DNA from: Chamaelirium japonicum
Taxonomy: Eukaryota; Streptophyta; Magnoliopsida; Liliales; Melanthiaceae
NCBI GenBank assembly: GCA_947650365.1
Contig: OX393551.1
Location: 61,993,173-62,057,172 of the forward strand
Length of the DNA: 64,000 nucleotides
Reading direction: 5' to 3'
The notes under the pieces were generated by a model that ran no database searches, had not been told where the DNA came from, and saw only the letters and a list, made by a program, of their open reading frames with translations. Shown one piece after another: positions 9,976 through 58,134 of this stretch (position 1 is its first letter; each line of letters begins with the position of its first letter). The position numbers and the translations under genes are program-made.

Positions 9976-10168
9976 GAACGAATGAATTAGAATAGATCGT
10001 AGGAATGAATTAGAATGGATCATACGAATGAATTAGAATTGATCGTGCGAATGAATTAGAATGGATTGTACGAATGAATTAGAATGGATACATTCGTGCG
10101 AATGAAGTAGAATGGATCGTACGAATGAATTAGAATGGGATCGTACGAATGAATTTGAATGGATCGTA
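9976..10168 (+). repeat. Satellite domain 9 (+)
   Basis: Inverted copy of domain 8, entered through the dyad CATTCGAACGAATG (9,971-9,984). It has the matching extra G (AATGGGATC) at about 10,134-10,142 and AATTTGAATGG near 10,152. It ends at GGATCGTACAATCC. Confidence 0.92.
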
Positions 10169-13670: not shown

Positions 13671-13864
13671 ATCTATTCTAATTCATTCGTTCGAATGTAT
13701 CCATTCTAATTCATTCGTACGATCCATTCTAATTCATTCGTACGATCCATTCTACTTCATTCGCACGAATGTATCCATTCTAATTCATTCGTACAATCCA
13801 TTCTAATTTATTCGCACGATCAATTCTAATTCATTCGTATGATCCATTATAATTCATTCGTACA
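13671..13864 (-). repeat. Satellite domain 12 (-)
   Basis: A reverse segment of about 195 bp, less than one full HOR. Its exit joint (CATTCGTACATTCGTGCGAA, then TGATGTAG) is the same as the one at about 35,757. Confidence 0.88.
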
Positions 13865-18762: not shown

Positions 18763-19107
18763 TGGATACATTCGAATGAATAAATTAGAATAGATCGTAG
18801 GAATGAATTAGAATGGATACATTCGTGCGAATGAAGTAGAATGGATCGTACGAATGAATTAGAATGAATCGTACGAATAAATTAGAATAGATACATTCGA
18901 ACGAATGAATTAGAATAGATCGTAGGAATAAATTAGAATGGATCATACGAATGAATTAGAATTGATCGTGCGAATGAATTAGAATGGATTGTACGAATAA
19001 ATTAGAATGGATACATTCATGCGAATGAAGTAGAATGGATCGTAAGAATGAAGTAGAATGGATCGTACGAATAAATTAGAATGGATCGTGCAAATGAATT
19101 AGAATCG
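18763..19107 (+). repeat. Satellite domain 17 (+)
   Basis: A 345-bp + segment. It ends with AAATGAATTAGAATCGATCC, a switch sequence also seen at about 25,025 and 35,416. Confidence 0.9.
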
Positions 19108-21485
19108 ATCCATTCTACTTCATTAGCACGATCCATTCTAATTCATTCGTACGATCCATTCTAATTCATTCATACGATCCATTGTAATTCATTCATATGA
19201 TCCATTCTAATTCATTCGCACGAATGTATCAATTCTAATCATTCGTACGATCCATTCTAATTCATTCGTACGATCCATTCTACTTCATTCGTACGAATGT
19301 ATCCATTCTAATTCATTCGTACAATCTATTCTAATTCATTCGCACGATCAATTCTAATTCATTCGTATGATCTATTCTAATTCATTCCTACGATCAATTC
19401 TAATTCATTCGTTCGAATGTTTCCATTCTAATTCATTCGTACGATTCATTCTAATTCATTCGTACGATCCATTCTGATTCATTCGTACGATCCATTCTAA
19501 TTCATTCGCATGAATGTATCCATTCTAATTCATTCGTACAATCCGTTCTAATTCATTCACACGATCATTTCTAATCCATTCGTATGATCCATTCTAATTC
19601 ATTCCTACGATTTATTCTAATTCATTCGTTCGAATGTATCCATTCTAATTCATTCGTACGATTCATTCTAATTCATTCGTACGATCCATTCTAATTCATT
19701 CGTTCGATCCATTCTACTTCATTCGTATGATCCATTCTAATTCATTCGTACGATTCATTCTAATTCATTCGTACGATCTATTCTACTTCATTCGCACGAA
19801 TGTATCCATTCTAATTCATTCGTACAATCCATTCTAATTCATTCGCACGATCAATTCTAATTCATTCGTATGATCCATTCTAATTCATTCCTACGATCTA
19901 TTCTAATTCATTCGTTCGAATGTATCCATTCTAATTAATTCGTACGATTCATTGTAATTCATTCGTACGATCCATTCTAATTCATTCGTACAATCCATTC
20001 TACTTTATTCTCACGAATGTATCCATTCTAATTCATTCGTACAATCCATTCTAATTTATTCGCACGATCAATTCTAATTCATTCATATGATCCATTCTAA
20101 TTCATTCCTACGATCTATTCTAATTCATTCGTTCGAATGTATCCATTCTAATTCATTCATACGATTCATTCTAATTCATTCGTACGATCCATTCTAATTC
20201 ATTCGTACGATCCATTCTACTTCATTCGCACGAATGTATCCATTCTAATTCATTCGTACAATCCATTCTAATTCATTCGCACGATCAATTCTAATTCATT
20301 CGTATGATCCATTCTAATTCATTCCTACGACCTATTCTAGTTCATTCGTTCGAATGTATCCATTCTAATTCATTCGTACGATCCATTCTAATTCATTCGT
20401 ACGATCCATTCTACTTCATTCGCACGAATGTATCCATTCTAATTCATTCGTACAATCCATTCTAATTCATTCGCACGATCAATTCTAATTCATTCGTATG
20501 ATCCATTCTAATTCATTCCTACGATCTATTCTAATTCATTCGTTCGAATGTATCCATTCTAATTCATTCGTACGATTCATTCTAATTCATTCGTACGATC
20601 CATTCTAATTCATTCGTACGATCCATTCTACTTCATTCGCACGAATGTGTCCATTCTAATTCATTCGTGCAATCCATTCTAATTCATTCGCACGATAATT
20701 TCTAATTCATTCGTATGATCCATTCTAATTCATTCCTACGATCTATTCTAATTCATTCGTTCGAATGTATCCATTCTAATTCATTCGTACGATTCATTCT
20801 AATTCATTCGTACAATCCATTCTAATTCATTCGTACAATCTATTCTAATTCATTCGTACGATCCATTCTAATTCATTCTAATTCATTCCTACGATCTATT
20901 CTAATTCATTCGTTTGAATATATCCAATCTAATTCATTCATACGATTCATTCTAATTCATTCGTACGATTCATTCTAATTCATTCGTACGATCCATTCTA
21001 CTTCATTCGCACGAATGTATCCATTCTAATTCATTCGTACAATCCATTCTAATTCATTCGCACGATCAATTCTAATTCATTCGTATGATCCATTCTAATT
21101 CATGCCTACGATCTATTCTAATTCATTCGTTCGAATGTTTCCATTCTAAATCATTCGTACGATTCATTCTAATTCATTCGTACAATCCATTCTAATTCAT
21201 TCGTACGATCCATTCTACTTCAATCGCACGAATGTATCCATTCTAATTCATTCGTACAATCCATTCTAATTCATTCACACGATCAATTCTAATTCATTCG
21301 TATGATCCATTCTAATTCATTCCTACGATCTATTCTAATTCATTCGTTCGAATGTATCCATTCTAATTCATTCGTACGATTCATTCTAATTCATTCGTAC
21401 GATCCATTCTACTTCATTCGCACGAATGTATCCATTCTAATTCATTCCTACGATCTATTCTAATTTATTCGTTCGAATGTATCCA
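19108..21485 (-). repeat. Satellite domain 18 (-)
   Basis: A 2.4-kb reverse tract of HORs: ACTTC at 20,219, 20,413 and 20,630 shows a 194-bp and a 217-bp unit. The first 150 bp are diverged type-B monomers. It ends GTATCCATGAATTAG. Confidence 0.91.
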
Positions 21486-22695
21486 TGAATTAGAATGGAT
21501 ACATTCGTGCGAATGAAGTAGAATGGATCGTACGAATGAATTAGAATGGATCGTACGAATGAATTAGAATGAATCGTATGAATGAATTAGAATGGATACA
21601 TTCGAACGAATGAATTAGAATAGAACGTAGGAATGAATTAGAATGGATCATACGAATGAATTAGAATTGATCGTGCGAATGAATTAGAATGGATTACACG
21701 AAAGAATTAGAATGGATACATTCGTGAGAATGAATTAGAATGGATCGTACGAATGAATTAGAATGGATCGAAGAATGAATTAGAATGAATCGTAATAATG
21801 AATTAGAATGGATACATTTGAACGAATGAATTAGAATAGATCGTAGGGAATCGTACGAATGAATTAGAATGGATACATTCGAACGAATGAATTAGAATAG
21901 ATCGTAGGAATGAATTAGAATGGATCATACGAATGAATTAGAAATGATCGTTCGAATGAATTAGAATGGATTGTACGAATGAATTAGAATAGATACATTC
22001 GTGCGAATGAAGTAGAATGGATCATACGAATGAATTAGAATGGATCGTACGAATGAATTAGAATGAATCGTACGAATGAATTAGAATGGATACATTCGAA
22101 CGAATAAATTAGAATAGATCGTAGGAATGAATTAGAATGGATCATACAAATGAATTAGAATTGATCGTAGGAATGAATTAGAATGGATTGTACGAATGAA
22201 TTAGAATGGATCGTACGAATGAATAAGAATGAATTGTACGAATGAATTAGAATGGATACATTCGTGCGAATGAAGTAGAATGGATCATACGAATGAATTA
22301 GAATGGATCGTACGAATGAATTAGAATGAATCGTACGAATGAATTAGAATGGATACATTCGAACGAATGAATTAGAATAGATCGTAGGAATGAATTAGAA
22401 TGGATCATACGAATGAATTAGAATTGATCGTGCGAATGAATTAGAATGGATTGTACGAATGAATTAGAATGGATACATTCGTGCGAATAAAGTAGAATGG
22501 ATCGTACGAATGAATTAGAATGGATCGTACGAATGAATTAGAATGAATCGTACGAATGAATTAGAATGGATACATTCGAACGAATGAATTAGAATAGATC
22601 GTAGGAATGAATTAGAATAGATCATACGAATGAATTAGAATTGATCGTGCGAATGAAATAGAATGGATTGTACGAATGAATTAGAATGGATACAT
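21486..22695 (+). repeat. Satellite domain 19 (+)
   Basis: HORs with several short losses, at about 21,845 (AGGGAATCG) and 22,200. It ends by running from a 28-mer tail (GGATACATTC) directly into TAATTCATTC. Confidence 0.9.
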
Positions 22696-23708
22696 TCTAA
22701 TTCATTCGTACGATCCATTCTAATTCATTCGTACGATCAATTCTAGTTCATTCGCACGAATGTATCCATTCTAATTCATTCGTACAATCCATTCTAATTC
22801 ATTCGCACGATCAATTCTAATTCATTCGTATGATCCATTCTAATTCATTCCTACGATCTATTCTAATTCACTCGTTCGAATGTATCCATTCTAATTCATT
22901 CGTACGATTCATTCTAATTCCTTCGTACGATCCATTCTAATTCATTCGTACGATCCATTCTACTTCATTCGCACGAATGTATCCATTCTAATTCATTCGT
23001 ACGATCCATTATAATTCATTCGTACGATCCATTCTAATTCATTCGCACGATCCATTCTAATTCATTCTCACAAATTTAACCTTTCTAATTCATTTGCACG
23101 ATCTATTCAAATTCATTCGCACTATCCATTCTAATTCATTTGTATGATCCATTCTAATTCATTCGTACGATCCATTCTAATCCATTCGTACGATGCATGG
23201 TAATTCATTCGTACGATCCATTCTAATTCATTCCTACGATCCATTCTACTTCATTCGCACGAATGTATCCATTCTAATTCATTCGTACAATCCATTCTAA
23301 TTCATTCGCACGATCAATTCTAATTCATTCGTATGATCCATTCTAATTCATTCCTACGATCTATTCTAATTCATTCGTTCGAATGTATCTATTTTAATTC
23401 ATTCGTACGATTTATTCTAATTCATTCGTACGATCCATTCTAATTCATTCGTACGATCCATTCTACTTCATTCGCACGAATGTATCCATTTTAATTCATT
23501 CGTACGATCAATTCTAATTCATTCGTATGATCCATTCTAATTCATTCCTATGATCTATTCTAATTCATTCGTTCGAATGTATCCATTCTAATTCATTCGT
23601 ACGATTCAACCTAATTCATTCGTATGATCCATTCTAATTCATTCGTACGATCCATTCTACTTCATTCGCACGAATGTATCCAATCTAATTCATTCGTACA
23701 ATCCATTC
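22696..23708 (-). repeat. Satellite domain 20 (-)
   Basis: Left part of the first copy of the 2.65-kb duplication; includes block C (23,066-23,205). It ends at ATCC-ATTC-GGAT, repeated exactly 2,650 bp later. Confidence 0.91.
23066..23205 (-). repeat. Block C copy 2
   Basis: Same variants as 15,796-15,935; differs by GTATGATCC and GATGCATGG. It sits in the first copy of the 2.65-kb duplication. Confidence 0.9.
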
Positions 23709-24321
23709 GGATACATTCGTGCGAATGAAGTAGAATGGATCGTACGAATGAATTAGAATGGATCGTACGAATGAATTAGAATGAATCGTACGAATGAATT
23801 AGAATGGATATATTCGAACGAATGAATTAGAATAGATCGTAGGAATGAATTAGAATGGATCATACGAATGAATTAGAATTGATCGTGCGAATGAATTAGA
23901 ATGGATTGTACGAATGAATTAGAATGGATACATTCGTGCGAATGAAGTAGAATGGATCGTACGAATGAATTAGAATGGATCGTACGAATGAATTAGAATG
24001 AATCGTACGAATGAATTAGAATGGATACATATGAACGAATGAATTAGAATAGATCGTAGGAATGAATTAGAATGGATCATACGAATGAATTAGAATTGAT
24101 CGTGCGAAAGAATTAGAATGGATTGCACGAATTAATTAGAATGGATACATTCGAGCGAATGAAGTAGAATGGATCGTACGAATGAATTAGAATGAATCGT
24201 ACGAATGAATTAGAATGGATACATTCGAACGAATGAATTAGAATAGATCGTAGGAATGAATTAGAATGGATCATACGAATGAATTAGAATTGATCGTGCG
24301 AATGAATTAGAATGGATTGTA
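23709..24321 (+). repeat. Satellite domain 21 (+)
   Basis: Regular HORs; the unit near 24,181 lacks one 23-mer that its duplicate retains. It ends at GGATTGTACGATCT. Confidence 0.9.
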
Positions 24322-24406
24322 CGATCTATTCTAATTCATTCGTTCGTACGATCTATTCTAATTCATTCGTACGATCCATTCTAATTCATTCGTTCGAATG
24401 TATCCA
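24322..24406 (-). repeat. Satellite domain 22 (-)
   Basis: A reverse insert of only 85 bp, duplicated as domain 26. It leaves at GTATCCAATGAATTAG. Confidence 0.9.
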
Positions 24407-25025
24407 ATGAATTAGAATGGATCATACGAATGAATTAGAATTGATCGTGCGAATGAATTAGAATGGATTGTACGAATGAATTAGAATGGATACATTCGTG
24501 CGAATGAAGTAGAATGGATCGTACGAATGAATTAGAATGGATACATTCGTGCGAATGAAGTAGAATGGATAGTACGAATGGATTAGAATGGATCGTACGA
24601 ATGAATTAGAATGAATCGTACGAATGAATTAGAATGGAAACATTCGAACGAATGAATTAGAATAGATCGTAGGAATGAATTAGAATGGATCATACGAATG
24701 AATTAGAATTGATCGTGCGAATGAATTAGAATGGATTGTACGAATGAATTAGAATGAATACATTCGTGCGAATGAAGTAGAATGGATCGTACGAATGAAT
24801 TAGAATGAATCGTACGAATGAATTAGAATGGATACATTCGAACGAATAAATTAGAATAGATCGTAGGAATGAATTAGAATGGATCATACGAATGAATTAG
24901 AATTGATCGTGTGAATGAATTAGAATGGATTGTACGAATGAATTAGAATGGATACATTCGTGCGAATGAAGTAGAATGGATCGTACGAATGAATTAGAAT
25001 GGATCGTGCAAATGAATTAGAATCG
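24407..25025 (+). repeat. Satellite domain 23 (+)
   Basis: HORs, duplicated in domain 27. One monomer 3-type step is missing near 24,781 relative to the other copy. It ends with the shared AATCGATCC joint. Confidence 0.9.
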
Positions 25026-26358
25026 ATCCATTCTACTTCATTAGCATGATCCATTCTAATTCATTCGTACGATCCATTCTAATTCATTCATACGATCCAT
25101 TGTAATTCATTCATAAGATCCATTCTAATTCATTCGCACGAATATATCAATTCTAATTCATTCGTACGATCCATTCTAATTCATTCATACGATCCATTCT
25201 ACTTCATTCGCACGAATGTATCCATTCTAATTCATTCGTACAATCCATTCTAATTTATTCGCACGATCAATTCTAATTCATTCGTACAATCCATTCTAAT
25301 TCATTCCTACGATCTATTCTAATTGATTCGTTCGAATGTATCCATTCTTATTCATTCGTACGATCCATTCTAATTCATTCGTATGATCCATTCTACTTCA
25401 TTCGCACGAATGTATCCATTCTAATTCATTCTTACAGTCCATTCTAATTCATTCGCACGATCAATTCAAATTCATTTGTATGATCCATTCTAATTCATTC
25501 CTACGATCTATTCTAATTCATTCGTTCGAATGTATCCATTCTAATTCATTCGTACGATTCATTCTAATTCATTCGTACGATCCATTCTAATTCATTCGTA
25601 CGATCCATTCTACTTCATTCGCACGAATGTATCCATTCTAATTCATTCGTACGATCCATTATAATTCATTCGTACGATCCATTCTAATTCATTCGCACGA
25701 TCCATTCTAATTCATTCTCACAAATTTAACCTTTCTAATTCATTTGCACGATCTATTCAAATTCATTCGCACTATCCATTCTAATTCATTTGTATGATCC
25801 ATTCTAATTCATTCGTACGATCCATTCTAATCCATTCGTACGATTCATGGTAATTCATTCGTATGATCCATTCTAATTCATTCCTACGATCCATTCTACT
25901 TCATTCGCACGAATGTATCCATTCTAATTCATTCGTACAATCCATTCTAATTCATTCGCACGATCAATTCTAATTCATTCGTTTGATCCATTCTAATTCA
26001 TTCCTACGATCTATTCTAATTCATTCGTTCGAATATATCCTTTCTAACTCATTCATACGATTCATTCTAATTCATTCGTACGATCCATTCTAATTCATTC
26101 GTACGATTCATTCTACTTCATTCGCACGAATGTATCCATTCTAATTCATTCGTACGATCAATTCTAATTCATTCGTATGATCCATTCTAATTAATTCCTA
26201 CGATCTATTCTAATTCATTCGTTCGAATGTATCCATTCTAATTCATTCGTACGATTCATTCTAATTCATTCGTGCGATCCATTCTAATTCATTCGTACGA
26301 TCCATTCTACTTCATTCGCACGAATGTATCCATTCTAATTCATTCGTACAATCCATTC
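25026..26358 (-). repeat. Satellite domain 24 (-)
   Basis: Begins with diverged type-B monomers, like domains 18 and 36. From about 25,350 it is the second copy of domain 20, with block C at 25,716-25,855. Confidence 0.91.
25716..25855 (-). repeat. Block C copy 3
   Basis: Exactly 2,650 bp after copy 2, with GATTCATGG in place of GATGCATGG. A short remnant (TCCATTCGTACGATCCATGG) is at about 58,061. Confidence 0.9.
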
Positions 26359-26995
26359 GGATACATTCGTGCGAATGAAGTAGAATGGATCGTACGAATG
26401 AATTAGAATGGATCGTACGAATGAATTAGAATGAATCGTACGAATGAATTAGAATGGATATATTCGAACGAATGAATTAGAATAGATCGTAGGAATGAAT
26501 TAGAATGGATCATACGAATGAATTAGAATTGATCGTGCGAATGAATTAGAATGGATTGTACGAATGAATTAGAATGGATACATTCGTGCGAATGAAGTAG
26601 AATGGATCGTACGAATGAATTAGAATGGATCGTACGAATGAATTAGAATGAATCGTACGAATGAATTAGAATGGATACATTCGAACGAATGAATTAGAAT
26701 AGATCGTAGGAATGAATTTGAATGGATCATACGAATGAATTAGAATTGATCGTGCGAATGAATTAGAATGGATTGCACGAATTAATTAGAATGGATACAT
26801 TCGAGCGAATAAAGTAGAATGGATCGTACGAATGAATTAGAATGGATCGTACGAATGAATTAGAATGAATCGTACGAATGAATTAGAATGGATACATTCG
26901 AACGAATGAATTAAAATAGATCGTAGGAATGAATTAGAATGGATCATACAAATGAATTAGAATTGATCGTGCGAATGAATTATAATGGATTGTAC
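26359..26995 (+). repeat. Satellite domain 25 (+)
   Basis: Second copy of domain 21, with offset 2,650 rising to 2,673 once the extra 23-mer is passed. Same entry and exit joints. Confidence 0.91.
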
Positions 26996-27080
26996 GATCT
27001 ATTCTAATTCATTCGTTCGTACGATCCATTCTAATTCATTCGTACGATTCATTCTAATTCATTCGTTCGAATGTATCCAA
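26996..27080 (-). repeat. Satellite domain 26 (-)
   Basis: Second copy of the 85-bp domain 22, with offset about 2,673. The exit reads GTATCCAAAGAATTAG, one base different. Confidence 0.9.
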
Positions 27081-27900
27081 AGAATTAGAATGGATCATAC
27101 GAATGAATTAGAATTGATCGTGCGAATGAATTAGAATGGATAGTACGAATGAATTAGAATGGATACATTCGTGCGAATGAAGTAGAATGGATCGTACGAA
27201 TGAATTAGAATGGATACATTCGTGCGAATGAAGTAGAACGGATAGTACGAATGAATTAGAATGGATCGTACGAATGAATTAGAATGAATCGTACGAATGA
27301 ATTAGAATGGAAACATTCGAACGAATGAATTAGAATAGATCGTAGGAATGAATTAGAATGGATCATACGAATGAATTAGAATTGATCGTGCGAATGAATT
27401 AGAATGGATTGTACGAATGAATTAGAATGGATACATTCGTGCGAATGAAGTAGAATGGATCGTACGAATGAATTAGAATGGATCGTACGAATGAATTAGA
27501 ATGAATCGTACGAATGAATTAGAATGGATACATTCGAACGAATAAATTAGAATAGATCGTAGGAATGAATTAAAATAGATCATACGAATGAATTAGAATT
27601 GATCGTGCGAATGAATTAGAATGGATTGTACGAATGAATTAGAATGGATACATTCGTGCGAATGAAGTAGAATGGATCGTACGAATGAATTAGAATGGAT
27701 CGTACGAATGAATTAGAATGAATCGTACGAATGAATTAGAATGGATACATTCGAACGAATGAATTAGAATAGATCGTAGGAATGAATTAGAATGGATCAT
27801 ACGAATGAATTAGAATTGATCGTGCGAATGAATTCGAATGGATTGCACGAATGAATTAGAATGGATACATTCATGCGAATGAAGTAGAATGGATCGTACG
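27081..27900 (+). repeat. Satellite domain 27 (+)
   Basis: Second copy of domain 23 up to about 27,700, then about 200 bp of ordinary HOR. It is cut off at GGATCGTACG, followed by CATTCGGAC of block B. Confidence 0.9.
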
Positions 27901-28126
27901 CATTCGGACAATCTATTCTAATTTATTCGTACGATCCATTCTAATTCATTAGCACGATCCATTCTAATTCATTCATACGATCCATTCTATTTCATTTGTA
28001 TGATCCATTTTTACTCATTCGTACGATCCATTCTAATTCATTCGCACGAATGTATCCATTCTAATTTAGTCATACGATCCATTCTAATTCATTCGCACGA
28101 TCCATTCTAATTCATTTATACGATCC
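27901..28126 (-). repeat. Block B, 226 bp, inverted copy
   Basis: Diverged-monomer block running from CATTCGGAC to TATACGATCC. Its reverse complement matches 28,522-28,747 over the same 226 bp with about five mismatches. Marks are GACTAAATT, GAGTAAA, AAATGAAATAG, GTGCTAATG and GATTGTCCG. It forms an inverted repeat with a 395-bp spacer. Confidence 0.92.
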
Positions 28127-28196
28127 ATTCTAATTCATTCGTACGATCCATTCTGATCCATTCGTACGATCCATTCTACATCATTCGCACGAATGT
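27901..28196 (-). repeat. Satellite domain 28 (-)
   Basis: Almost all block B in reverse (27,901-28,126), then diverged monomers. It leaves through CATTCGCACGAATG. Confidence 0.91.
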
Positions 28197-29640
28197 ACGA
28201 ATGAATTAGAATGGATCATACGAATGAATTAGAATTGATCGTGCGAATGAATTAGAATGGATTGTACGAATGAATTAGAATGGATACATTCGTGCGAATG
28301 AAGTAGAATGGATCGTACGAATGAATTAGAATGGATCGTACGAATGAATTAGAATGGATACATTCGAACGAATGAATTAGAATAGATCGTAGGAATGAAT
28401 TAGAATGGATCATACGAATGAATTAGAATTGATCGTGCGAATGAATTAGAATGGATTGTACAAATGAATTAGAATTGATTGTAGGAATGAATTAGAATGG
28501 ATCATACGAATGAATTAGAATGGATCGTATAAATGAATTAGAATGGATCGTGCAAATGAATTAGAATGGATCGTATGACTGAATTAGAATGGATACATTC
28601 GTGCGAATGAATTAGAATGGATCGTACGAATGAGTAAGAATGGATCATACAAATGAAATAGAATGGATCGTACGAATGAATTAGAATGGATCGTGCTAAT
28701 GAATTAGAATGGATCGTACGAACAAATTAGAATAGATTGTCCGAATGAATACATTCGTGCGAATGAATTAGAATGGATCGTATGAATGAATTAGAATGGA
28801 TGGTATGAATGAATTTGAATGGATCGTACGAATGAATTACAATGGATACATTCGTCCGAATGAATTAGAATGGATCGTACGAATGAATTAGAATGGATCG
28901 TACGAATGAATTAGAATGGATACATTCGAACGAATGAATTAGAATAGATCGTAGGAATGAATTAGAATGGATCATCCGAATGAATTAGAATTGATCGTGC
29001 GAATGAATTAGAATAGATTGTACGAATTAATTAGAATGGATACATTCGTGCGAATGAATTAGAATGGATCGTACGAATGAATTAGAATGGATCGTACGAA
29101 TGAATTAGAATGAATCGTACGAATGAATTAGAATGGATACATTCGAACGAATGAATTAGAATAGATCGTAGGAATGAATTAGAATGGATCATACGAATGA
29201 ATTAGAATTGATCATGCGAATGAATTAGAATGGATTGTACGAATGAATTAAAATGGATACATTCGTGCGAATGAAGTAGAACGGATCGTACGAATGAATT
29301 AGAATGGATCGTACGAATGAATTAGAATGAATCGTACGAATGAATTAGAATGGATCGTACGAATGAATTAGAATGGATACATTCATGCGAATGAATTAGA
29401 ATGGATCGTACGAATGAATTAGAATGGATCGAACGAATAAATTAGAATGGATCATACGAGTGAATTAGAATTGATCGTGCGAATGAATTAGAATGGATTG
29501 TACGAATGAATTAGAATGGATACATTCGTGCGAATGAAGTAGAATGGATCGTACGAATGAATTAGAATGGATCTTACGAATGAATTAGAATGAATCGTAC
29601 GAATGAATTAGAATGGATCATACGAATGAATTAGAATGGA
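28197..29640 (+). repeat. Satellite domain 29 (+)
   Basis: About 290 bp of HOR, then block B in + orientation (28,522-28,747) and diverged monomers to about 28,850, then HORs. From 29,390 it is the outer left arm of the large inverted repeat. It ends on a GGATCC palindrome centred at 29,640/29,641. Confidence 0.91.
28522..28747 (+). repeat. Block B, 226 bp, direct copy
   Basis: From GGATCGTATAAATG to ATTGTCCGAATG. It contains nine 23-mers and one 28-mer in an order different from the main HOR, without the GAAGTAG and TAGATCGTAGG diagnostic monomers, so it represents an older or separate HOR lineage. Confidence 0.91.
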
Positions 29641-29700
29641 TCCATTCTAATTCATTCGTACGATCCATTCTAATTCATTTGTACGATCCATTCTACTTCA
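29581..29700. repeat. Palindrome at the GGATCC switch
   Basis: Arms 29,581-29,640 and 29,641-29,700 pair at 56 of 60 positions; the inner 20 bp on each side are exact. It could form a cruciform. The mirror switch at 34,524/34,525 has a similar palindrome with one mismatch in the inner 21 bp. Confidence 0.9.
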
Positions 29701-30475
29701 TTCGCACGAATGTATCCATTCTAATTCATTCGTACAATCCATTCTAATTCATTCGCACGAGCAATTCTAATTCATTCGTATGATCCATTCTAATTCATTC
29801 CTACGATCTATTCTAATTCATTCGTTCGAATGTATCCATTCTAATTCATTCGTACGATTCATTCTAATTCATTTGTACGATCCATTCTAATTCATTCGTA
29901 CGATCCATTCTACTTCATTCGCAAGAATGTATCCATTCTAATTCATTCGTACAATCCATTCTAATTCATTCGCACGATCAATTCTAATTCATTCGTATGA
30001 TCCATTCTAATTCATTCCTACGATCTATTCTAATTCATTAGTTTGAATGTATCCATTCTAATTCATTCGTACGATTCATTCTAATTCATTCGTACAATCC
30101 ATTCTAATTCATTCGTACGATCCATTCTAATTCATTCATATGATCCATTCTAATTCATTCCTACGATCTATTCTAATTCATTCGTTCGAATGTATCCATT
30201 CTAATTCATTCGTATGATTCATTCTAATCCATTCGTACGATCCATTCTAATTCATTCGTATGATCCGATCTACTTCATTCGCACGAATGTATCCATTCTA
30301 ATTCATTCGTACAATCCATTCTAATTCATTCGCACGATCAATTCTAAGTCATTCATATGATCTATTCTAATTCATTCCTACGATCCATTCTAATTCATTC
30401 GTACGATCCATTCTAATTCATTCCTATGTACGATCCATTCTAATCTATTCCTGTGATCCATTCTAATTCATTCGT
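29641..30475 (-). repeat. Satellite domain 30 (-)
   Basis: Reverse HORs forming part of the left arm of the large inverted repeat and mirrored by domain 33. It leaves through CATTCGTGCGAATG. Confidence 0.92.
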
Positions 30476-31150
30476 GCGAATGAATTAGATTGCATCGTAC
30501 TAATGAATTAGAATGGATCGGACGAATGAATTAGAAAATGGATACATTCGAACGAATGAATTAGAATAGATCGTAGGAATGAATTAGAATGGATCATACG
30601 AATGAATTAGAATTGATCGTGCGAATGAATTAGAATGGATTGTACGAATGAATTAGAATGGATACATTCGTGCGAATGAAGTAGAATGGATCGTACGAAT
30701 GAATTAGAATGGATCGTAAGAATGAATTGAATGAATTAGAATTGATCGTAGGAATGAATTAGAATGGATCATACGAATGAATTAGAATTGATCGTGCGAA
30801 TGAATTAGAATGGATTGTACGAATGAATTAGAATGGATACATTCGTGAGAATGAAGTAGAATGGATCGTATGAATGAATTAGAATGGATCGTACGAATGA
30901 ATTAGAATGAATCGTACGAATGAATTAGAATGGATACATTCGAACGAATGAATTAGAATAGATCGTTGGAATGAATTAGAATGGATCATACGAATGAATT
31001 AGAATTGATCGTGCGAATGAATTAGAATGGATTGTAGGAATGAATTAGAATGGATACATTCGTGCGAATGAAGTACAATGGATCGTACGAATGAATTAGA
31101 ATGGATCGTACGAATGAATTAGAATGGATCGTACGAATGAATTAGAATGG
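30476..31150 (+). repeat. Satellite domain 31 (+)
   Basis: HORs; 30,476-30,985 still belongs to the left arm. It carries the private variant GAAAATGG (30,534-30,541) and a short joint AATGAATTGAATG at about 30,721. It ends at AATGGAATGTATCC, a joint repeated at 57,445. Confidence 0.91.
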
Positions 31151-31665
31151 AATGTATCCATTCTAATTCATTCGTGCAATCCATTCTAATTCATTCGCAC
31201 GATCCATTCTACTTCATTCGCACGAATGTATCCATTCTAATTCATTCGTACAATCCATTATAATTCATTCGCACGATCAATTCTAATTCATTCGTATGAT
31301 CCATTCTAATTCATTCCTACGATCTATTCTAATTCATTCAATTCATTCGTACGATCCATTCTAATTCATTCGTACGATCCATTCTACTTCATTCGCACGA
31401 ATGTATCCATTCTAATTCATTCGTACGATTCATTCTAATTCATTCGTACGATCTATTCTAATTCATTCGTACGATCCATTCTAATTCATTCGTACGATCC
31501 ATTCTAATTCATTCGTACGATCCATTCTAATTCATTCGTATGATCCATTCTAATTCATTCGTACGATCCATTCTAATTTATTCGTTCGAATGTATCCATT
31601 CTAATTCATTCGTATGATTCATTCTAATTCATTCGTACGATCCATTCTAATTCATTCGTATGATC

Positions 31666-31811
31666 ATTATGGCAATTTGATCATCCTCACAAAAAATTAA
31701 CAAAATCTGAAAGTTCTAAGGGCGCCGATTGAATCAAACGTTTCTGAACCGTCTATTTGAACCGTTAATTTAAATAACACATTTGACACCCTTATAAGTT
31801 TCCGAATTTGC
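31666..31811. other. Non-satellite tag, 146 bp
   Basis: The longest stretch that cannot be aligned to the monomer. It includes a GGCGCC palindrome (31,721-31,726), two GAACCGT copies 14 bp apart (31,746 and 31,760) and ATTTAAAT. It has no useful open frame, no transposon terminus I recognise and no RNA fold I can support. TGATC stands on both sides (31,661-31,665 and 31,812-31,816), but TGATCC is also normal reverse-monomer sequence, so a target-site duplication is not proven. It lies inside domain 32, in the core of the large inverted repeat. It could be captured flanking DNA or a fragment of an unknown element. Confidence 0.9.
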
Positions 31812-32200
31812 TGATCCATTCTAATTCATTCGTACGATCCATTCTAATTCATTCGCACAAATGTATCCATTCTAATTCATTCGCTCGAATATATCCATTT
31901 TAATTCATTCGTACGATCCATTCTAATTCATTCGTACGATCTAATTCATTCATACGATCCATTATAATTCATTCGTATGATCGATTCTAATTCATTTGCA
32001 CGATCCATTCTAATTCATTCGTACGATCCATTCTAATTCATTCGTATGATTCATTCTAATCCATTCGTACGATCCATTTAATTCATTCGTACGATCAATT
32101 CTAATTCATTCTCACAAATGTAACATTTCTAATTCATTTGTACGATCCATTCAAATTCATTCGTACGATCCATTCTAATTCATTCCTACGATCTATTCTA
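31746..32200 (-). repeat. Tag-linked block, copy 1
   Basis: The tag's right half plus about 390 bp of diverged reverse monomers with distinctive variants: CGCACAAATG, CGCTCGAATATATCC, GATCGATTC and CTCACAAATGTAAC. The same set in the same order follows the second tag, so the whole block was duplicated. Confidence 0.85.
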
Positions 32201-33690
32201 ATTCATTCGTTCGAATGTATCCATTCTAATTTATTCATACGATCCATTCTAATTCATTCGTACGATCCATTCTACTTCATTCGCACGAATGTATCCTTTC
32301 TAATTCATTCGTACAATCCATTCTAATTCATTTGCACGATCAATTCTAATTCATTCGTATGATCCATTCTAATTCATTCCTACGATCTATTCTAATTCAT
32401 TCGTTCGAATGTATCCATTCTAATTCATTCGTACGATTCATTCTAATTCATTCGTACGATCCATTCTATTTCATTCGTACGATCCATTCTACTTCATTCG
32501 CACGAATGTATCCATTCTAATTCCTTCGTACAATCCATTCTAATTCATTCGCACGATCAATTCTAATTCATTCGTATGATCCATTCTAATTCATTCCTAC
32601 GATCTATTCTAATTCATTAGTTCGAATGTATCCATTCTAATTCATTCGTACGATTCATTCTAATTCATTCGTACGATCCATTCTAATTCATTCGTACGAT
32701 CCATTCTACTTCATTCGCATGAATGTATCTATTCTAATTCATTCGTACAATCCATTCTAATTCATTCGCACGATCAATACTAATTCATTCGTATGATCCA
32801 TTCTAATTCATTCCTACGATCTATTCTAATTCATTCGTTCGAATGTATCCATTCTAATTCATTCGTACGATTCATTCTAATTCATTCGTACGATCCATTA
32901 TGATTCATTCGTACGATCCATTCTAATTCATTCGCACGATCAATTCTACTTCATTCGTATGATCTATTCTAATTTATTCCTACGATCTATTCTAATTCAT
33001 TCGTTCGAATCTTTCCATTCTAATTCATTCGTACGATTCATTCTAATTCATTCGTACGATCCATTGTGATTCATTCGTACGATCCATTCTAATTCATTCG
33101 TACGATCCATTCTACTTCATTCGCACGAATGGATCCATTCTAATTCATTCGTACAATCCATTCTAATTCATTCGTACAATTCATTCTAATTCATTCCTAC
33201 GATCTATTCTAATTCATTCGTTCGAATGTTTCCATTCTAATTCATTCGTACGATTCATTCTAATTCATTCGTACGATCCATTCTAATTCATTCATACGAT
33301 CCATTCTACTTCATTCTCACGAATGTATCCATTCTAATTCATTCGTACAATCCATTCTAATTCATTCGCACGATCAATTCTAATTCATTCGTATGATCCA
33401 TTCTAATTCATTCCTATGATCAATTCTAATTCATTCAATTCATTCTTACGATCCATTCTAATTCATTCGTACGATCCATTCTACTTCATTCGCACGAATG
33501 TATCCATTCTAATTCATTCGTACAATCCATTCTAATTCATTCGCACGATCAATTCTAATTCATTCGTATGATCCATTCTAATTCATTCCTACGATCTATT
33601 CTAATTCATCCGTTCGAATGTATCCATTTTCTAATTCATTCGTCCGATCCATTCTAATTCATTCGTACGATGCAATCTAATTCATTCGCA

Positions 33691-34524
33691 CGAATGAATT
33701 AGAATGGATCACAGGAATAGATTAGAATGGATCGTACATAGGAATGAATTAGAATGGATCGTACGAATGAATTAGAATGGATCGTAGGAATGAATTAGAA
33801 TAGATCATATGAATGACTTAGAATTGATCGTGCGAATGAATTAGAATGGATTGTACGAATGAATTAGAATGGATACATTCGTGCGAATGAAGTAGAACGG
33901 ATCATACGAATGAATTAGAATGGATCGTACGAATGGATTAGAATGAATCATACGAATGAATTAGAATGGATACATTCGAACGAATGAATTAGAATAGATC
34001 GTAGGAATGAATTAGAATGGATCATACGAATGAATTAGAATGGATCGTACGAATGAATTAGAATGGATTGTACGAATGAATTAGAATGAATCGTACGAAT
34101 GAATTAGAATGGATATATTCGAACTAATGAATTAGAATTGATCGTAGGAATGAATTAGAATGGATCATACGAATGAATTAGAATTGATCGTGCGAATGAA
34201 TTAGAATGGATTGTACGAATGAATTAGAATGGATACATTCGTGCGAATGAAGTAGAATGGATCGTACGAATGAATTAGAATGGATCGTACGAATGAATTA
34301 GAATGAATCGTACGAATGAATTAGAATGGATACATTCGAACGAATGAATTAGAATAGATCGTAGGAATGAATTAGAATGGATCATACGAATGAATTAGAA
34401 TTGATCGTGCGAATGAATTAGAATGGATTGTACGAATGAATTAGAATGGATACATTCGTGCGAATGAAGTAGAATGGATCGTACGAATGAATTAAAATGG
34501 ATCGTACGAATGAAATAGAATGGA
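33691..34524 (+). repeat. Satellite domain 33 (+)
   Basis: Mirror image of domain 30 (positions sum to 64,165). It shares private marks such as GACTTAG near 33,815 and GAATGGATTAG near 33,931. It ends on GGATCC centred at 34,524/34,525. Confidence 0.92.
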
Positions 34525-34752
34525 TCCATTCTAATTCATTCGTACGATTCATTCTAATTCATTCGTACGATCCATTCTAATTCATTCGTACGATCCATTC
34601 TACTTCATTCGCACGACTGTATCCATTCTAATTCATTCGTACTATCCATTCTAATTCATTCGCACGATCAATTCTAATTCATTCGTATGATCCATTCTAA
34701 TTTATTCGTTCGATCCATTCTAATTCATTCGTACGATCCATTCTAATTCATT
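34525..34752 (-). repeat. Satellite domain 34 (-)
   Basis: Mirror of 29,390-29,640, apart from one 23-bp monomer (tail ATCATAC) present only on the left side. It shares the rare GGATCGAACGAATAAATT mark. It ends CATTCGGATCATACG. Confidence 0.91.
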
Positions 34753-35416
34753 CGGATCATACGAATGAATTAGAATGAATCGTACGAATGAATTAGAATG
34801 GATACATTCGAACTAATGAATTAGAATAGATCGTAGGAATGAATTAGAATGGATCATACGAATGAATTAGAATTGATCGTGCGAATGAATTAGAATGGAT
34901 TGTACGAAGGAATTAGAATAGATCATACGAATGAATTAGAATGGATCGTACGAAAGAATTAGAATGAATCGTACGAATGAATTAGAATGGATACATTCGA
35001 ACGAATGAATTAGAATAGATCATAGGAATGAATTAGAATGGATCATACGAATGAATTAGAATTGATCGTGCGAATGAATTAGAATGGATTGTACGAATGA
35101 ATTAGAATGGATACATTCGTGCGAATGAAGTAGAACGGATCGTACGAATGAATTAGAATGGATCGTACGAATGAATTAGAATGAATCGTACGAATGAATT
35201 AGAATAGATCGTAGGAATGAATTAGAATGGATCGTATGAATTAGAATGGATCATACGAATGAATTAGAATTGATCGTGCGAATGAATTAGAATGGATTGT
35301 ACGAATGAATTAGAATGGATACATTCGTGCGAATAAAGTAGAATGGATCGTAAGAATAAAGTAGAATGGATCGTACGAATGAATTAGAATGGATCGTGCA
35401 AATGAATTAGAATCGA
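34753..35416 (+). repeat. Satellite domain 35 (+)
   Basis: Partial HORs, ending in diverged type-B monomers and the shared AATCGATCC joint. Confidence 0.9.
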
Positions 35417-35756
35417 TCCATTCTACTTCATTAGCACGATCCATTCTAATTCATTCATTCAATCCATTCTAATTCATTCGTATGATTCATTCTACTTCAT
35501 TCTAATTCATTCGCACGATCAATTCTAATTCATTCGTATGATCCATTCTAATTCATTCCTACGATCTATTCTAATTCATTCGTTCGAATGTATCTATTCT
35601 AATTCATTCGTATGATCCATTCTAATTCATTCGTACGATCCATTCTACTTCATTCGCACGAATGTATCCATTCTAATTCATTCGTACAATCCATTCTAAT
35701 TCATTCGCACGATCAATTCTAATTCATTCGTATGATCCATTCTAATTCATTCGTAC
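35417..35756 (-). repeat. Satellite domain 36 (-)
   Basis: A 340-bp reverse segment; the first 80 bp are shuffled (TACTTCATTCTAATTCATTC near 35,490). It ends with the joint also found at 13,864. Confidence 0.9.
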
Positions 35757-38700
35757 ATTCGTGCGAATGATGTAGAATGGATCGTACGAATGAATCAGAA
35801 TGAATCGTACGAATGAATTAGAATGGATACATTCGAACGAATGAATTAGAATAGATCGTAGGAATGAATTAGAATGGATCATACGAATGAATTAGAATTG
35901 ATCGTGCGAATGAATTAGAATGGATTGCACGAATGAATTAGAATGGATCGTACGAATGAATTAGAATGAATCGTACGAATGAATTAGAATGGATATTTTC
36001 GAACGAATGAATTAGAATAGATCGTAGGAATGAATTAGAATGGATCATACGAATGAATTAGAATTGATCGTGCGAATGAATTAGAATGGATTGCACGAAT
36101 GAATTAGAATGGATACATTCGTGCGAATGAAGTAGAATGGATCGTACGAATGAATTAGAATGGATCATACGAATGAATTATAATGAATCGTACGAATGAA
36201 TTAGAATGGATACATTCGAACGAATGAATTAGAATATATCGTAGGAATGAATTAGAATGGATCATACGAATGAATTAGAATTGAACGTGCGAATGAATTA
36301 GAATGGATTGTACGAATGAATTAGAATGGATACATTCGTGCGAATGAATCAGAATGGATACATTTGTGCGAATGAATTAGAATGGATCGTACGAATGAAT
36401 TAGAATGGATACATTCGAACGAATAAATTAGAATAGATCGTAGGAATGAATTAGAATGGATCATACGGATGAATTAGAATTGATCGTGCGAATGAATTAG
36501 AATGGATTGTACGAATGAATTAGAATGGATACATTCGTGCGAATGAAGTAGAATGGATCGTACGAATGAATTAGAATGGATCGTACGAATGAATTAGAAT
36601 GAATCGTACGAATGAATTAGAATGGATACGTTCGAACGAATGAATTAGAATAGATCGTAGGAATGAATTAGAATGGATCATACGAATGAATTAGAATTGA
36701 TCGTGCGAATGAATTAGAATGGATTGTACGAATGAATTAGAATGGATACATTCGTGAGAATGAAGTAGAATAGATCGTACGAATGAATTAGAATGGATCG
36801 TACGAATGAATTAGAATGAATCATACGAATGAATTATAATGGATAAATTCGAACGAATGAATTAGAATAGATCATAGAAATGAATTAGAATGGATCATAC
36901 GAATGAATTAGAATTGATCGTGTGAATGAATTAGAATGGATTGTACGAATGAATTAGAATGGATACATTCGTGCGAATGAAGTAGAATGGATTGTACGAA
37001 TGAATTAGAATGGATCGTATGAATGAATTAGAATGAATCGTATGAATGAGTTAGAATGGATACATTCGAACGAATGAATCAGAATAGATCGTAGGAATGA
37101 ATTAGAATGGATCATACGAATGAATTAGAATTGATCGTGCGAATGAATTAGAATGGATTGTACGAATGAATTAGAATGGATACATTCGTGAGAATGAAGT
37201 AGAATGGATCGTACGAATGAATTAGAATGGATCGTACGAATGAATTAGAATGAATATACGAATGAATTAGAATGGATACATTCGAACGAATGAATTAGAA
37301 TAGATCGTAGGAATGAATTAGAATGGATCATACGAATGAATTAGAATTGATCATGCGAATGAATTAGAATGGATTGTACGAATGAATTAGAATGGATACA
37401 TTCGTGCGAATGAAGTAGAATGGATCGTACGAATGAATTAGAATGGATCGTACGAATGAATTAGAATGAATCGTACGAATGAATTAGAATGGATACATTC
37501 GAACGAATGAATTAGAATAGATCGTAGGAATGAATTAGAATGGATCATACAAATGAATTAGAATTGATCGTGCGAATGAATTAGAATGGATTGTACGAAT
37601 GAATTAGAATGGATACATTCGTGCGAATGAAGTAGAATGGATCGTACGAATGAATTAGAATGGATCGTACGAATGAATTAGAATGAATCGTACGAATGAA
37701 TTAGAATGGATACATTCGAACGAATGAATTAGAATAGATCGTAGGAATGAATTAGAATGGATCATACGAATGAATTAGAATTGATCGAGCGAATGAATTA
37801 GAATGGGTTGTACGAATGAATTAGAATGGATACATTCGTGAGAATGAAGTAGAATGGATCGTACGAATGAATTAGAGTGGATCGTACGAATGAATTAGAA
37901 TGAATCATACGAATGAATTAGAATGGATACATTCGAACGAATGAATTAGAATAGATCGTAGGAATGAATTAGAATGGATCATACGAATGAATTAGAATTG
38001 ATCATGCGAATGAATTAGAATGGATTGTACGAATGAATTAGAATGGATACATTCGTGCGAATGAAGTAGAATGGATCGTACGAATGAATTAGAATGGATC
38101 GTACGAATGAATTAGAATGAATCGTACGAATGTATTAGAATGGATACATTCGAACGAATGAATTAGAATAGATCGTAGGAATGAATTAGAATGGATACAT
38201 TCTGCGAATGAATTAGAATGGATTGTACGAATGAATTAGAATGGATACATTCGTGCGAATGAAGTAGAATGGATCGTACGAATGAATTAGAATGGATCGT
38301 ACGAATGAATTAGAATGAATCGTACGAATGAATTAGAATGGATACATTCGAACGAATGAATTAGAATAGATCGTAGGAATGAATTAGAATGGATCATACG
38401 AATGAATTAGAATTGATCATGCGAATGAATTAGAATGGATTGTACGAATGAATTAGAATGGATACATTCGTGAGAATGAAGTAGAATGGATCGTACGAAT
38501 GAATTAGAATGAATCATACGAATGAATTAGAATGGATACATTCGAACGAATGAATTAGAATAGATCGTAGGAATGAATTAGAATAGATCAAACGAATGAA
38601 TTAGAATTGATCGTGCGAATGAATTAGAATGGATTATACGAATGAATTAGAATGGATACATTCGTGCGAATAAAGTAGAATGGATCGTACGAATGAATTA

Positions 38701-39479
38701 GAATGGATCGTACGAATGAATTAGAATGAATCGTAAGAATGAATTAGAAAGGATACATTCGAACGAATGAATTAGAATAGATCGTAGGAATGAATTAGAA
38801 TGGATCATACGAATGAATTAGAATTGATCGTGCGAATGAATTAGAATGGATTGTACGAATGAATTAGAACGGATACATTCGTGCGAATGAAGTAGAATGG
38901 ATCGTACGAATGAATTAGAATGGATCGTACGAATGAATTAGAATGAATCGTACGAATGAATTAGAATGGATACATTCGAACGAATGAATTAGAATAGATC
39001 GTAGGAATGAATTAGAATGAATCATACGAATGAATTAGAATTGATCGTGCGAATGAATTAGAATGGATTGTACGAATGAATTAGAATGGATACATTCGTG
39101 AGAATGAAGTAGAATGGATCGTACGAATGAATTAGAATGGATCGTACGAATGAATTAGAATGAATCATACGAATGAGTTAGAATGGATACATTCGAACGA
39201 ATGAATTAGAATAGATCGTAGGAATGAATTAGAATGGATCATATGAATGAATTAGAACTGATCGTGCGAATGAATTAGAATGGATTGTACAAATGAATTA
39301 GAATGGATACATTCGTGCGAATGAAGTAGAATGGATCGTACGAATGAATTAGAATGGATCGTATGAATGAATTAGAATGAATCGTACGAATGAATTAGAA
39401 TGGATACATTCGAACGAATGAATTAGAATAGATCGTAGGAATGAATTAGAATGGATCATACGAATGAATTAGAATTGAT

Positions 39480-40210
39480 CGTGCGAATGAATTAGAATGG
39501 ATTGTACGAATGAATTAGAATGGATACATTCATGAGAATGAAGTAGAATGGATCGTACGAATGAATTAGAATGGATCGTACGAATGAATCATACGAATGA
39601 ATTAGAATGGATACATTCGATCGAATGAATTAGAATAGATCGTAGGAATGAATTAGAATGGATCATACGAATGAATTAGAATTGATCGTGCGAATGAATT
39701 AGAATGGATTGTACGAATGAATTAGAATGGATACATTCGTGCGAATGAAGTAGAATGGATCGTACGAATGAATTAGAATGGATCGTACGAATGAATTAGA
39801 ATGAATCGTACGAATGAATTAGAATGGATACATTCGAACGAATGAATTAGAATAGATCATTGGAATGAATTAGAATGGATCATACGAATGAATTATAATT
39901 GATCGTGCGAATGAATTAGAATGGATTGTACGAATGAATTAGAATGGATACATTCGTGCGAATGAAGTAGAATGGATCGTACGAATGAATTAGAATGGAT
40001 CGTACGAATGAATTAGAATGAATCGTACAAATGAATTAGAATGGATACATTCGAACGAATGAATTAGAATAGATCGTAGGAATGAATTAGAATGGATCAT
40101 ACGAATGAATTAGAATTGATCGTGCGAATGAATTAGAATGGATTGTCTGAATGAATTAGAATGGATACATTCGTGAGAATGAAGTAGAATGGATCGTACG
40201 AATGAATTAG
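39480..40210 (+). repeat. Third, partial copy of a macro-repeat segment
   Basis: Carries CATGAG (39,531), CATTCGATCG (about 39,613), GATCATTGG (about 39,856), GTACAAATG and GATTGTCTG (40,141) in the order seen at 44.9-45.6 and 49.7-50.4 kb. Offset to the former is 5,412 before and 5,422 after a private 10-bp loss. Units outside do not share the marks. Confidence 0.88.
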
Positions 40211-41478
40211 AATGGATCGTACGAATGAATTAAAATGAATCATACGAATGAATTAGAATGGATATATTCGAACGAATGAATTAGAATAGATCGTAGGAAT
40301 GAATTAGAATGGATCATACGAATGAATTAGAATTGATCGTGCGAATGAATTAGAATGGATTGTACGAATGAATTAGAATGGATACATTCGTGCGAATGAA
40401 GTAGAATGGATCGTACGAATGAATTAGAATGGATCGTACGAATGAATTAGAATGAATCGTACGAATGAATTAGAATGGATACATTCGAACGAATGAATTA
40501 GAATAGATCGTAGGAATGAATTAGAATGGATCATACGAATGAATTAGAATTGATCGTGCGAATGAATTAGAATTGATTGTACGAATGAATTAGAATGGAT
40601 ACATTCGTGAGAATGAAGTAGAATGGATCGTACGAATGAATTAGAATGGATCGTACTAATGAATTAGAATGAATCATACGAATGAATTAGAATGGATACA
40701 TTCGAACGAATGAATTAGAATAGATCATAGGAATGAATTAGAATGGATCATACGAATGAATTAGAATTGATCGTGCGAATGAATTAGAATGGATTGTACG
40801 AATGAATTAGAATGGATACATTCGTGCGAATGAAGTAGAATGGATCGTACGAATGAATTAGAATGGATCGTACGAATGAATTAGAATGAATCGTACGAAT
40901 AAATTAGAATGGATATATTCGAACGAATGAATTAGAATAGATCGTAGGAATGAATTAGAATGGATCATACGAATGAATTAGAATTGATCGTGCGAATGAA
41001 TTAGAATGGATTGTACGAATGAATTAGAATCGATACATTCGTGCGAATGAAGTAGAATGGATCGTACGAATGAATTAGAATGGATCGTACGAATGAATTA
41101 GAATGAATCGTACGAATGAATTAGAATGGATACATTCGAACGAATGAATTAGAATAGATCGTAGGAATGAATTAGAATGGATCATACGAATGAATTAGAA
41201 TTGATCGTGCGAATGAATTAGAATGGATTGTACGAATGAATTAGAATGGATACATTCGTGAGAATGAAGTAGAATGGATCGTACGAATGAATTAGAATGG
41301 ATCGTACGAATGAATTAGAATGAATCATACGAATAAATTAGAATGGATACATTCGAACGAATGAATTAGAATAGATCGTAGGAATGAATTAGAATGGATT
41401 ATACGAATGAATTAGAATTGATCGTGCGAATGAATTAGAATGGATTGTACGAATGAATTAGAATGGATACATTCGTGC

Positions 41479-41695
41479 GAATGAAGTAGAATGGATCGTA
41501 CGAATGAATTAGAATGGATCGTACGAATGAATTAGAATGAATCGTACGAATGAATTAGAATGGATACATTCGAACGAATGAATTAGAATAGATCGTAGGA
41601 ATGAATTAGAATGGATCATACGAATGAATTAGAATTGATCGTGCGAATGAATTAGAATGGATTGTACGAATGAATTAGAATGGATACATTCGTGC
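41479..41695 (+). repeat. Reference 217-bp higher-order repeat unit
   Basis: This unit shows the consensus of the nine-monomer HOR. In order: m1 41,479-41,501 (GAAGTAG variant); m2 41,502-41,524 (standard); m3 41,525-41,547 (GAATGAATCG in place of GAATGGATCG); m4 41,548-41,575 (28 bp, tail ending CATTCGAAC); m5 41,576-41,598 (AATAGATCGTAG); m6 41,599-41,621 (tail ATCATAC); m7 41,622-41,644 (AATTGATCGTGC); m8 41,645-41,667 (tail ATTGTAC); m9 41,668-41,695 (28 bp, tail ending CATTCGTGC). The sum 7x23 + 2x28 gives 217. The next unit starts at 41,696 with the same GAAGTAG monomer. Diagnostic variants such as GAAGTAG and TAGATCGTAGG recur at this spacing through most of the window, in both orientations. 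Confidence 0.96.
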
Positions 41696-58092: not shown

Positions 58093-58134
58093 ACGAATGA
58101 ATTAGAATGGATCATACGAATGAATTAGAATTGA
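58093..58134 (+). repeat. Satellite domain 41 (+), under two monomers
   Basis: About 42 bp in + orientation between two reverse domains, the first of a cluster of very short flips. It ends at GAATTGATCCATTC. Confidence 0.85.

What the first reader, a model, noticed from the sequence alone, without database searches (positions are those of the whole stretch)
29390..34752. Giant inverted repeat (arms about 1.6 kb) around a core with the non-satellite tag
Mirrored positions sum to 64,165 across 1.3 kb of each arm, and continue outward with one 23-bp shift. At least six private variants are mirrored. The unique tag, one of only two non-satellite sequences in the window, sits in the core about 340 bp from the geometric centre. 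The whole resembles a composite unit that might move or invert as one piece.
Basis: partly seen in the sequence, partly recalled or inferred. Interest (0 to 1): 0.85.

Follow-up and report, generated by a model that had tools for sequence, protein, structure and literature searches.

The report
Inverted duplication inside holocentromere satellite
The mirror-image structure is real, but it looks like a by-product of a plant centromere repeat that keeps breaking and rejoining; the foreign scrap at its core is useful as a natural tracer of how such repeats spread along a chromosome.

Summary
In detail: 29390-31152 and 33013-34752 mirror each other (sum 64165 over 1411 bp, 1389 identical, then a 23-bp shift).

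The array matches the 23/28-bp Chio1/Chio2 holocentromere satellite of Chionographis japonica, and the assembly's size and N50 match the published genome. The 'tag' is a 148-bp internal piece of a dispersed palindromic MITE flanked by TA runs. All examined copies share the same joints to the satellite, so it was probably captured once, at TGATC/TGAT microhomology, then amplified (37 intact copies).

The arms are two members of a roughly 97%-identical block family, local sisters (support 97/99) in inverted orientation. The full composite was found once more, 30.5 Mb away on the same chromosome. Of 19 other tag loci examined only that one has both arms; nine of them were seen with just 1.5 kb flanks. 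Five of five other arms examined lack an intact tag beside them. So it is not a mobile unit. Breaks inside the tag show 0-5 bp microhomology, which suggests repeated microhomology-mediated joining or template switching.

Bolder lead: tag and inversion joints are nearly confined to two satellite units of one chromosome plus seven unplaced contigs, which would make them tracers of exchange between centromere units.

The parts
1..64000 (.). 23-bp / 28-bp satellite array (Chio1/Chio2-type) with 49 orientation switches
   Evidence: unit spacings 23 bp (1994) and 28 bp (513); 50 orientation runs
29390..31152 (+). left arm of the inverted repeat: one member of a ~1.75-kb block family; internal switches near 29641 and 30474
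31139..31169 (+). left-arm/core joint (+ to - switch at 31152/31153); the same 31-base joint recurs at 57433-57463 and at 90 places in the genome
   Evidence: C3 30.16-31.50 Mb 23, C3 61.27-62.08 Mb 12, C5 1, seven unplaced contigs 54
31153..33012 (-). core between the arms: minus-orientation satellite with the tag
31666..31813 (+). tag: 148-bp internal fragment of a dispersed palindromic MITE, joined to satellite at TGATC (left) and TGAT (right)
33013..34752 (-). right arm (inverted copy of the left arm); internal switches near 33688 and 34525
62201..62268 (+). second tag copy, truncated: tag positions 81-148 only, same right flank
   Evidence: the same breakpoint in 3 of 20 right-joint loci read

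Best explanation
The structure is a local inverted duplication of a higher-order block inside a megabase-scale holocentromere satellite. (1) A 148-bp internal fragment of a MITE was joined into the satellite, probably once, at short microhomologies (shown: same joints in all copies read; single capture is inferred). (2) The tagged satellite was amplified. (3) During and after amplification, breaks or stalled forks were rejoined or switched template at 0-5 bp microhomologies, often onto the opposite strand, helped by the palindromic GATC, CGTACG and TCGTACGA words in the monomer. This made new inversion joints and, now and then, long inverted repeats; the window's arms are one such pair, formed or homogenised locally (inferred). 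(4) Successful products were copied on by ordinary satellite amplification, including one more copy of this composite in another satellite unit of the same chromosome. No transposase, recombinase or coding function is implied.
For: Arms are sisters in a tree of 11 copies (97/99; inner-left arm of the second composite left out); other pairs that neighbour each other on a contig are also sisters, in direct orientation (B_R/B_far and C139_336/C139_326 starred; 5 and 10 private SNVs), so duplication is local and orientation is incidental. Nine distinct breakpoints inside the unique tag, read in 40 of 94 left-joint and 20 of 199 right-joint sites, show overlaps of 3 (or 0), 2, 4, 1, 4, 3, 1, 5 and 0 bp; mean 2.2-2.6 against 0.77 for random joins, with 8 and 0 of 20,000 random draws reaching those means. 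Of the five breakpoints that keep the tag's left end, positions 15, 73 and 87 lead straight into opposite-strand satellite (9, 21 and 3 loci) and 80 and 90 do so after a short stretch: breakage and inversion go together. 62 distinct orientation switches among 185 in the window and 36 loci have mostly 0-4 bp overlap (36 of 60 kept), with an excess at 6 bp or more (10 of 60 against 5.1% in random joins, p 0.0009; 2 of 62 dropped as metric artefacts). Long inverted repeats recur: L065 has 1187-bp arms at 98.2% with a truncated tag in each, and six more head-to-head left-joint pairs 2.1-2.4 kb apart are listed.
Against: The two classes of mechanism (end joining, template switching) are not separated by these data. 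Most orientation switches have overlaps no longer than random joins. Breakpoints that keep the tag's right end are mostly direct, not inverted, joints, so inversion is not universal. L039 (C3:30162911) keeps the left-arm/core joint and carries an 88.9% relative of the right arm about 1 kb nearer the tag, and C128:642 kb looks similar by coordinates, so arms and tag are not wholly unlinked. Single capture is inferred from shared joints, not dated.
Confidence: 0.78

Rival explanations
1. A composite mobile or invertible element: the arms act as terminal inverted repeats that carry the tag as cargo.
For: A second full copy exists 30.5 Mb away in opposite orientation, core 96.6-98.1% identical; arm family has many copies; L039 and, by coordinates, C128:642 kb hold a partial or diverged arrangement.
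Against: 1 of 19 other tag loci examined has both arms; 5 of 5 other arms examined have no intact tag inside. The left arm's similarity continues outward beyond the supposed ends in the second locus's other arm blocks, and the second locus sits in a 6.73-kb direct repeat. Arm identity equals that of unlinked copies. The tag's own MITE termini are absent.
Confidence: 0.06
2. A single block copied and homogenised by homologous recombination or gene conversion alone, with the arms kept alike by intra-palindrome conversion.
For: A 42-bp deletion and 3 SNV states are shared only by both window arms and the inner-left arm of the second composite, while the right arm of the second composite lacks the deletion and is sister to its direct neighbour: patchy similarity as conversion would give.
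Against: Homologous exchange does not by itself create new orientation joints; nine breakpoints in unique sequence with 0-5 bp overlap need a second process. Probably both act.
Confidence: 0.1
3. Assembly artefact: fold-back read chimera or collapsed haplotypes.
For: Satellite in a Hi-C-scaffolded assembly; no reads were available here.
Against: Arms differ by about 2% plus 23-bp and 5-bp indels, whereas a fold-back read would give near-identical arms; the left-arm/core joint recurs at 90 places; the composite recurs elsewhere. No N was found in the 28.4-kb second locus.
Confidence: 0.05

Closest known systems
Chio1/Chio2 holocentromere satellite of Chionographis japonica (Kuo et al. 2023, PMC10264360; abstract, sections 8, 14, 29 and passages read)
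   Same: 23- and 28-bp monomers, an 8-bp dyad symmetry, mixed forward and reverse arrays, a Chio1/2 higher-order cluster, megabase units on 12 chromosomes; published N50 81.11 Mb equals contig C8 (81,106,678 bases) and total 1.526 Gb is close to 1.519 Gb here
   Different: The parts of the paper that I read do not mention a MITE tag, long inverted-repeat blocks, joint microhomology, or joints private to one chromosome; its figures and supplements were not seen, so the monomer was not compared letter by letter
TA-microsatellite-targeting foldback MITEs: MuTAnT (PMC4486113), SaTar/Micron (PMC5907723); passages read
   Same: The dispersed parent element is short, palindromic, begins with a G run, and is flanked by TA runs in the consensus of 16 copies
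   Different: Different sequence; the window holds only an internal 148-bp fragment without ends or TA flanks, placed in satellite by microhomology rather than transposition
Human satellites 2/3 (PMC4022460; passages read)
   Same: Short-monomer pericentromeric satellite in which reads matching both strands were noted as possible inversion breakpoints
   Different: No captured transposon tag or arm-core-arm block was discussed in the passages read

Membership tests
Chio1/Chio2 satellite | monomers of 23 and 28 bp | tested here: met
   spacings 23 (1994) and 28 (513)
Chio1/Chio2 satellite | 8-bp dyad symmetry in the monomer | tested here: met
   TCGTACGA in the 23-bp unit
Chio1/Chio2 satellite | mixture of forward and reverse arrays | tested here: met
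   50 orientation runs in 64 kb
Chio1/Chio2 satellite | several arrays along each of 12 chromosomes, genome as published | tested here: met
   satellite matches at several places on C3-C6, C10 and C11; plant genes; total and N50 agree. Number of chromosomes was not counted here
Chio1/Chio2 satellite | published monomer letters | not testable with these tools
   consensus is in a figure and a supplementary table, not held
Chio1/Chio2 satellite | CENH3 enrichment | not testable with these tools
   no ChIP data
TA-targeting MULE-type MITE (parent of the tag) | long terminal inverted repeats, palindromic, flanked by TA microsatellite | tested here: met
   consensus of 16 of 21 dispersed copies scored
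TA-targeting MULE-type MITE (parent of the tag) | 8-11 bp target-site duplication; transposase relative | not tested
   duplications are unreadable in TA runs; no transposase search was made
TA-targeting MULE-type MITE (the window tag itself) | element ends and TA flanks at the insertion | tested here: not met
   internal fragment only, joined at TGATC/TGAT
Composite mobile unit | cargo consistently flanked by the same inverted arms | tested here: not met
   1 of 19 other tag loci; 0 of 5 other arms with an intact tag
Composite mobile unit | target-site duplication or constant ends | tested here: inconclusive
   flanks are repetitive; the second copy's similarity fades near 29365 on the left
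Invertible segment with site-specific recombinase | core seen in both orientations between the same flanks | not testable with these tools
   needs reads or haplotypes

The most novel reading that the evidence does not exclude
The tag and the inversion joints are natural barcodes showing that two centromere units about 30 Mb apart on one holocentric chromosome draw on one recently amplified, chromosome-private satellite pool: units on the same chromosome exchange satellite (for example within a shared chromocenter) far more than units on different chromosomes do. Left tag joint: 28 sites in C3 30.07-31.48 Mb, 15 in C3 61.38-62.10 Mb, 51 on seven unplaced contigs, 0 on other chromosomes (94 of 94 listed). 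A tag-free inversion joint: 16, 22, 60 and 0 on the same two units and the same seven contigs (98 of 98). The composite's own joint: 23, 12, 54, plus 1 on C5 (90 of 90). Tag breakpoints 73, 81 and 133 each occur in both units. Mis-scaffolding of one unit, or an old inversion that split one unit, is not excluded; both units carry the tag mostly on + (19 of 28 and 13 of 15), which does not favour a simple split by inversion.
Probability: 0.4. Interest if true: 0.75.

Novelty: new member of a known kind. Interest (0 to 1): 0.5.

Why it matters
How repeat-based holocentromeres multiply and spread their units is an open question in the Chionographis paper (section 14: interlocus conversion, inversions with one breakpoint in an array, or circular DNA). 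A unique, once-captured fragment inside the satellite turns anonymous repeats into traceable ones: breakpoints, strand switches and transfers between units can be counted in unambiguous sequence. The inverted repeat itself is an expected product of that traffic.

Tried and rejected
Mobile or invertible composite unit: rejected as the main reading because arms and tag mostly occur apart. Arms specially alike because paired: rejected on identity (97.9% against 97.8% for unlinked copies), kept in part because of private variants and the tree. Site-specific switching: orientation joints have many different sequences (62 distinct of 185). Monomer letters in the literature library: no paper holds three 23-base rotations searched as text. 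Control joints from other arrays (C11 and C184) have 1 exact copy plus 3 with one mismatch (C4, C82) and 2 copies, none on C3; these are only two controls, and they show that joints elsewhere are not amplified rather than how other pools are shared. Not done: reading all 37 intact tags; arms were compared in 12 copies of at least 16 long matches.
Full report
Setting. The window is G000:C3:61993173-62057172 of a 1,518,659,071-base assembly in 3253 contigs. It is a plant by its chlorophyll-binding protein genes (28 matches). The 23-bp monomer with a 28-bp variant (1994 and 513 spacings), the 8-bp palindrome TCGTACGA in the monomer and the mixed strands (50 runs, so 49 switches) match Chio1/Chio2 of Chionographis japonica as described in PMC10264360 (abstract, sections 8, 14, 29 and passages read). 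The published contig total is 1,526,137,861 bp and the scaffold N50 81.11 Mb; contig C8 here is 81,106,678 bases. The species is inferred from these agreements; no tool named it.

The observation. Blastn gives 95.9% over 1752 bp. For inverted matches of 1.5-2 kb the next best in the window is 93.0%; shorter ones reach 97.6% (from a list cut at 20,000).

The tag. A search of the genome scored 40 of 1155 candidates: 19 (window included) are the 148-bp piece alone, and 21 are full palindromic copies with the other half inverted beside it. Sixteen of those 21 were aligned: the parent element is roughly 560-580 bp, palindromic, with inverted ends and TA runs on both sides in the consensus. It resembles the TA-targeting foldback MITEs MuTAnT and SaTar/Micron (passages of PMC4486113 and PMC5907723) in kind, not in sequence. 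The window piece lacks both ends. Its left joint shares TGATC and its right joint TGAT between satellite and MITE, and 13 of the 19 other tag copies compared have the same tag sequence, the window differing from them at two sites. Genome-wide there are 37 tags with both joints exact, all with the same spacing, 94 left joints and 199 right joints with up to one mismatch, and 0 for reversed controls. So many copies are broken. The window's second non-satellite stretch is one of these broken copies.

The arms. The 1.74-kb left arm has at least 16 long relatives on C3 and unplaced contigs (only 40 of 8134 candidates were scored). Twelve copies were aligned. The window arms are 97.9% alike; the left arm is 96.9-97.8% like nine others and 92.7% like the inner-left arm of the second composite. 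Yet the two window arms share 6 private SNV states, second of 55 pairs (first is a direct pair on C139 with 10), or 4 if that inner-left arm is included, plus a 42-bp deletion shared only with it. They form a clade at 97/99 in a tree of 11 copies. Contig neighbours in direct orientation behave the same way. So the arms are local sisters that happen to be inverted.

Does it travel as a unit? A second full composite lies at C3:31.4757-31.4812 Mb in opposite orientation: right arm 94.4%, right core 96.6%, tag 96.6%, left core 98.1%, left arm 89.2% by blastn; along the alignment most 100-bp bins from 29665 to 34713 are 94-100%, with a weaker stretch (89-92%) at 33113-33413 and a few indels, and similarity fades past 29365. 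That locus lies in a 6.73-kb direct repeat of arm-bearing blocks. Of 19 other tag loci examined, this is the only one with both arms. Nine others were read with 2.5-4 kb flanks: the best arm hits over more than a third of an arm are 92.3% and partial. The remaining nine were read with 1.5 kb flanks: left-side best hits are 82-91%, so the left arm is not intact beside the core. One of the nine with longer flanks, L039, keeps the left-arm/core joint and an 88.9% full-length relative of the right arm about 1 kb nearer; C128:642 kb appears alike by coordinates but was not read with flanks. Five other arms, read 4 kb inward, have no intact tag (one has 15 bp of it). The whole does not behave as a mobile unit.

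How it forms. Because the tag is unique sequence, breaks in it are unambiguous. Forty left-joint and 20 right-joint sites were read, chosen as not intact. Left-end-keeping breaks fall at tag positions 15 (9 loci), 73 (21), 87 (3), 80 (1) and 90 (1); 3 of the 40 were in effect intact and 2 had only a small internal change. Right-end-keeping breaks fall at 133 (13), 81 (3), 97 (3) and 101 (1). The first group leads into satellite of the opposite strand, the second mostly into the same strand. Overlaps at the nine joints are 0-5 bp, more than random joins give. Across 185 orientation switches, 62 distinct, overlaps are mostly 0-4 bp with an excess of 6 bp or more. Palindromic words in the monomer make strand switching cheap; this step is inference. 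Long inverted repeats are common products: the locus L065 has 1187-bp arms, 98.2% alike, each with a tag cut at position 73, and seven head-to-head tag pairs in all are listed at 2.1-2.4 kb spacing.

Where the joints are. The left tag joint is on C3 only (28 sites near 30-31.5 Mb, 15 near 61.4-62.1 Mb) and on seven unplaced contigs (51). A tag-free inversion joint gives 16, 22 and 60 on the same places, and the composite's own joint 23, 12 and 54, plus one on C5. The satellite itself is on many chromosomes. Twenty 300-bp samples of C3 show satellite at 29.95-32.0 Mb (7 of 7 samples), at 60.8 and at 61.2-62.15 Mb (4 of 4), and other DNA at 29.6, 29.8, 46.0, 61.0 and 62.25-63.0 Mb. Breakpoints 73, 81 and 133 occur in both C3 units. 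This is what exchange between units on one chromosome would leave, and the paper's section 14 proposes such exchange; but mis-scaffolding and an old split of one unit remain possible.

Verdict. Observation confirmed; interpretation partly supported. It is a new member of a known kind (inversion-rich centromere satellite), with a tracer that could make an open question testable.

Noticed in passing
L065 (C3:31208700-31216700), 2356-3542 and 4414-5599: Another long inverted repeat, 98.2% over 1187 bp, with a tag truncated at position 73 in each arm; six more head-to-head tag pairs with 2.1-2.4 kb spacing are listed.
   Followed up: partly
C3 30.07-31.50 Mb and 61.27-62.10 Mb, contigs C124, C128, C139, C166, C167, C176, C240: Three different joints share nearly the same distribution (94, 98 and 90 sites), with 0, 0 and 1 site on other chromosomes; the seven contigs probably belong to the same arrays.
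   Followed up: partly
window 19092, 25010 and 35400: One inversion joint (ATCGAT type) occurs three times in the window and 98 times in the genome.
   Followed up: partly
window 33686-57445: Long 217-bp higher-order array, 110 copies, 89% matches, almost all on +: an unusually quiet stretch beside the inversion-rich parts.
   Followed up: no
L023-L038: Dispersed palindromic MITE of about 560-580 bp inside TA runs; 1155 first-look candidates for its half in the genome.
   Followed up: partly
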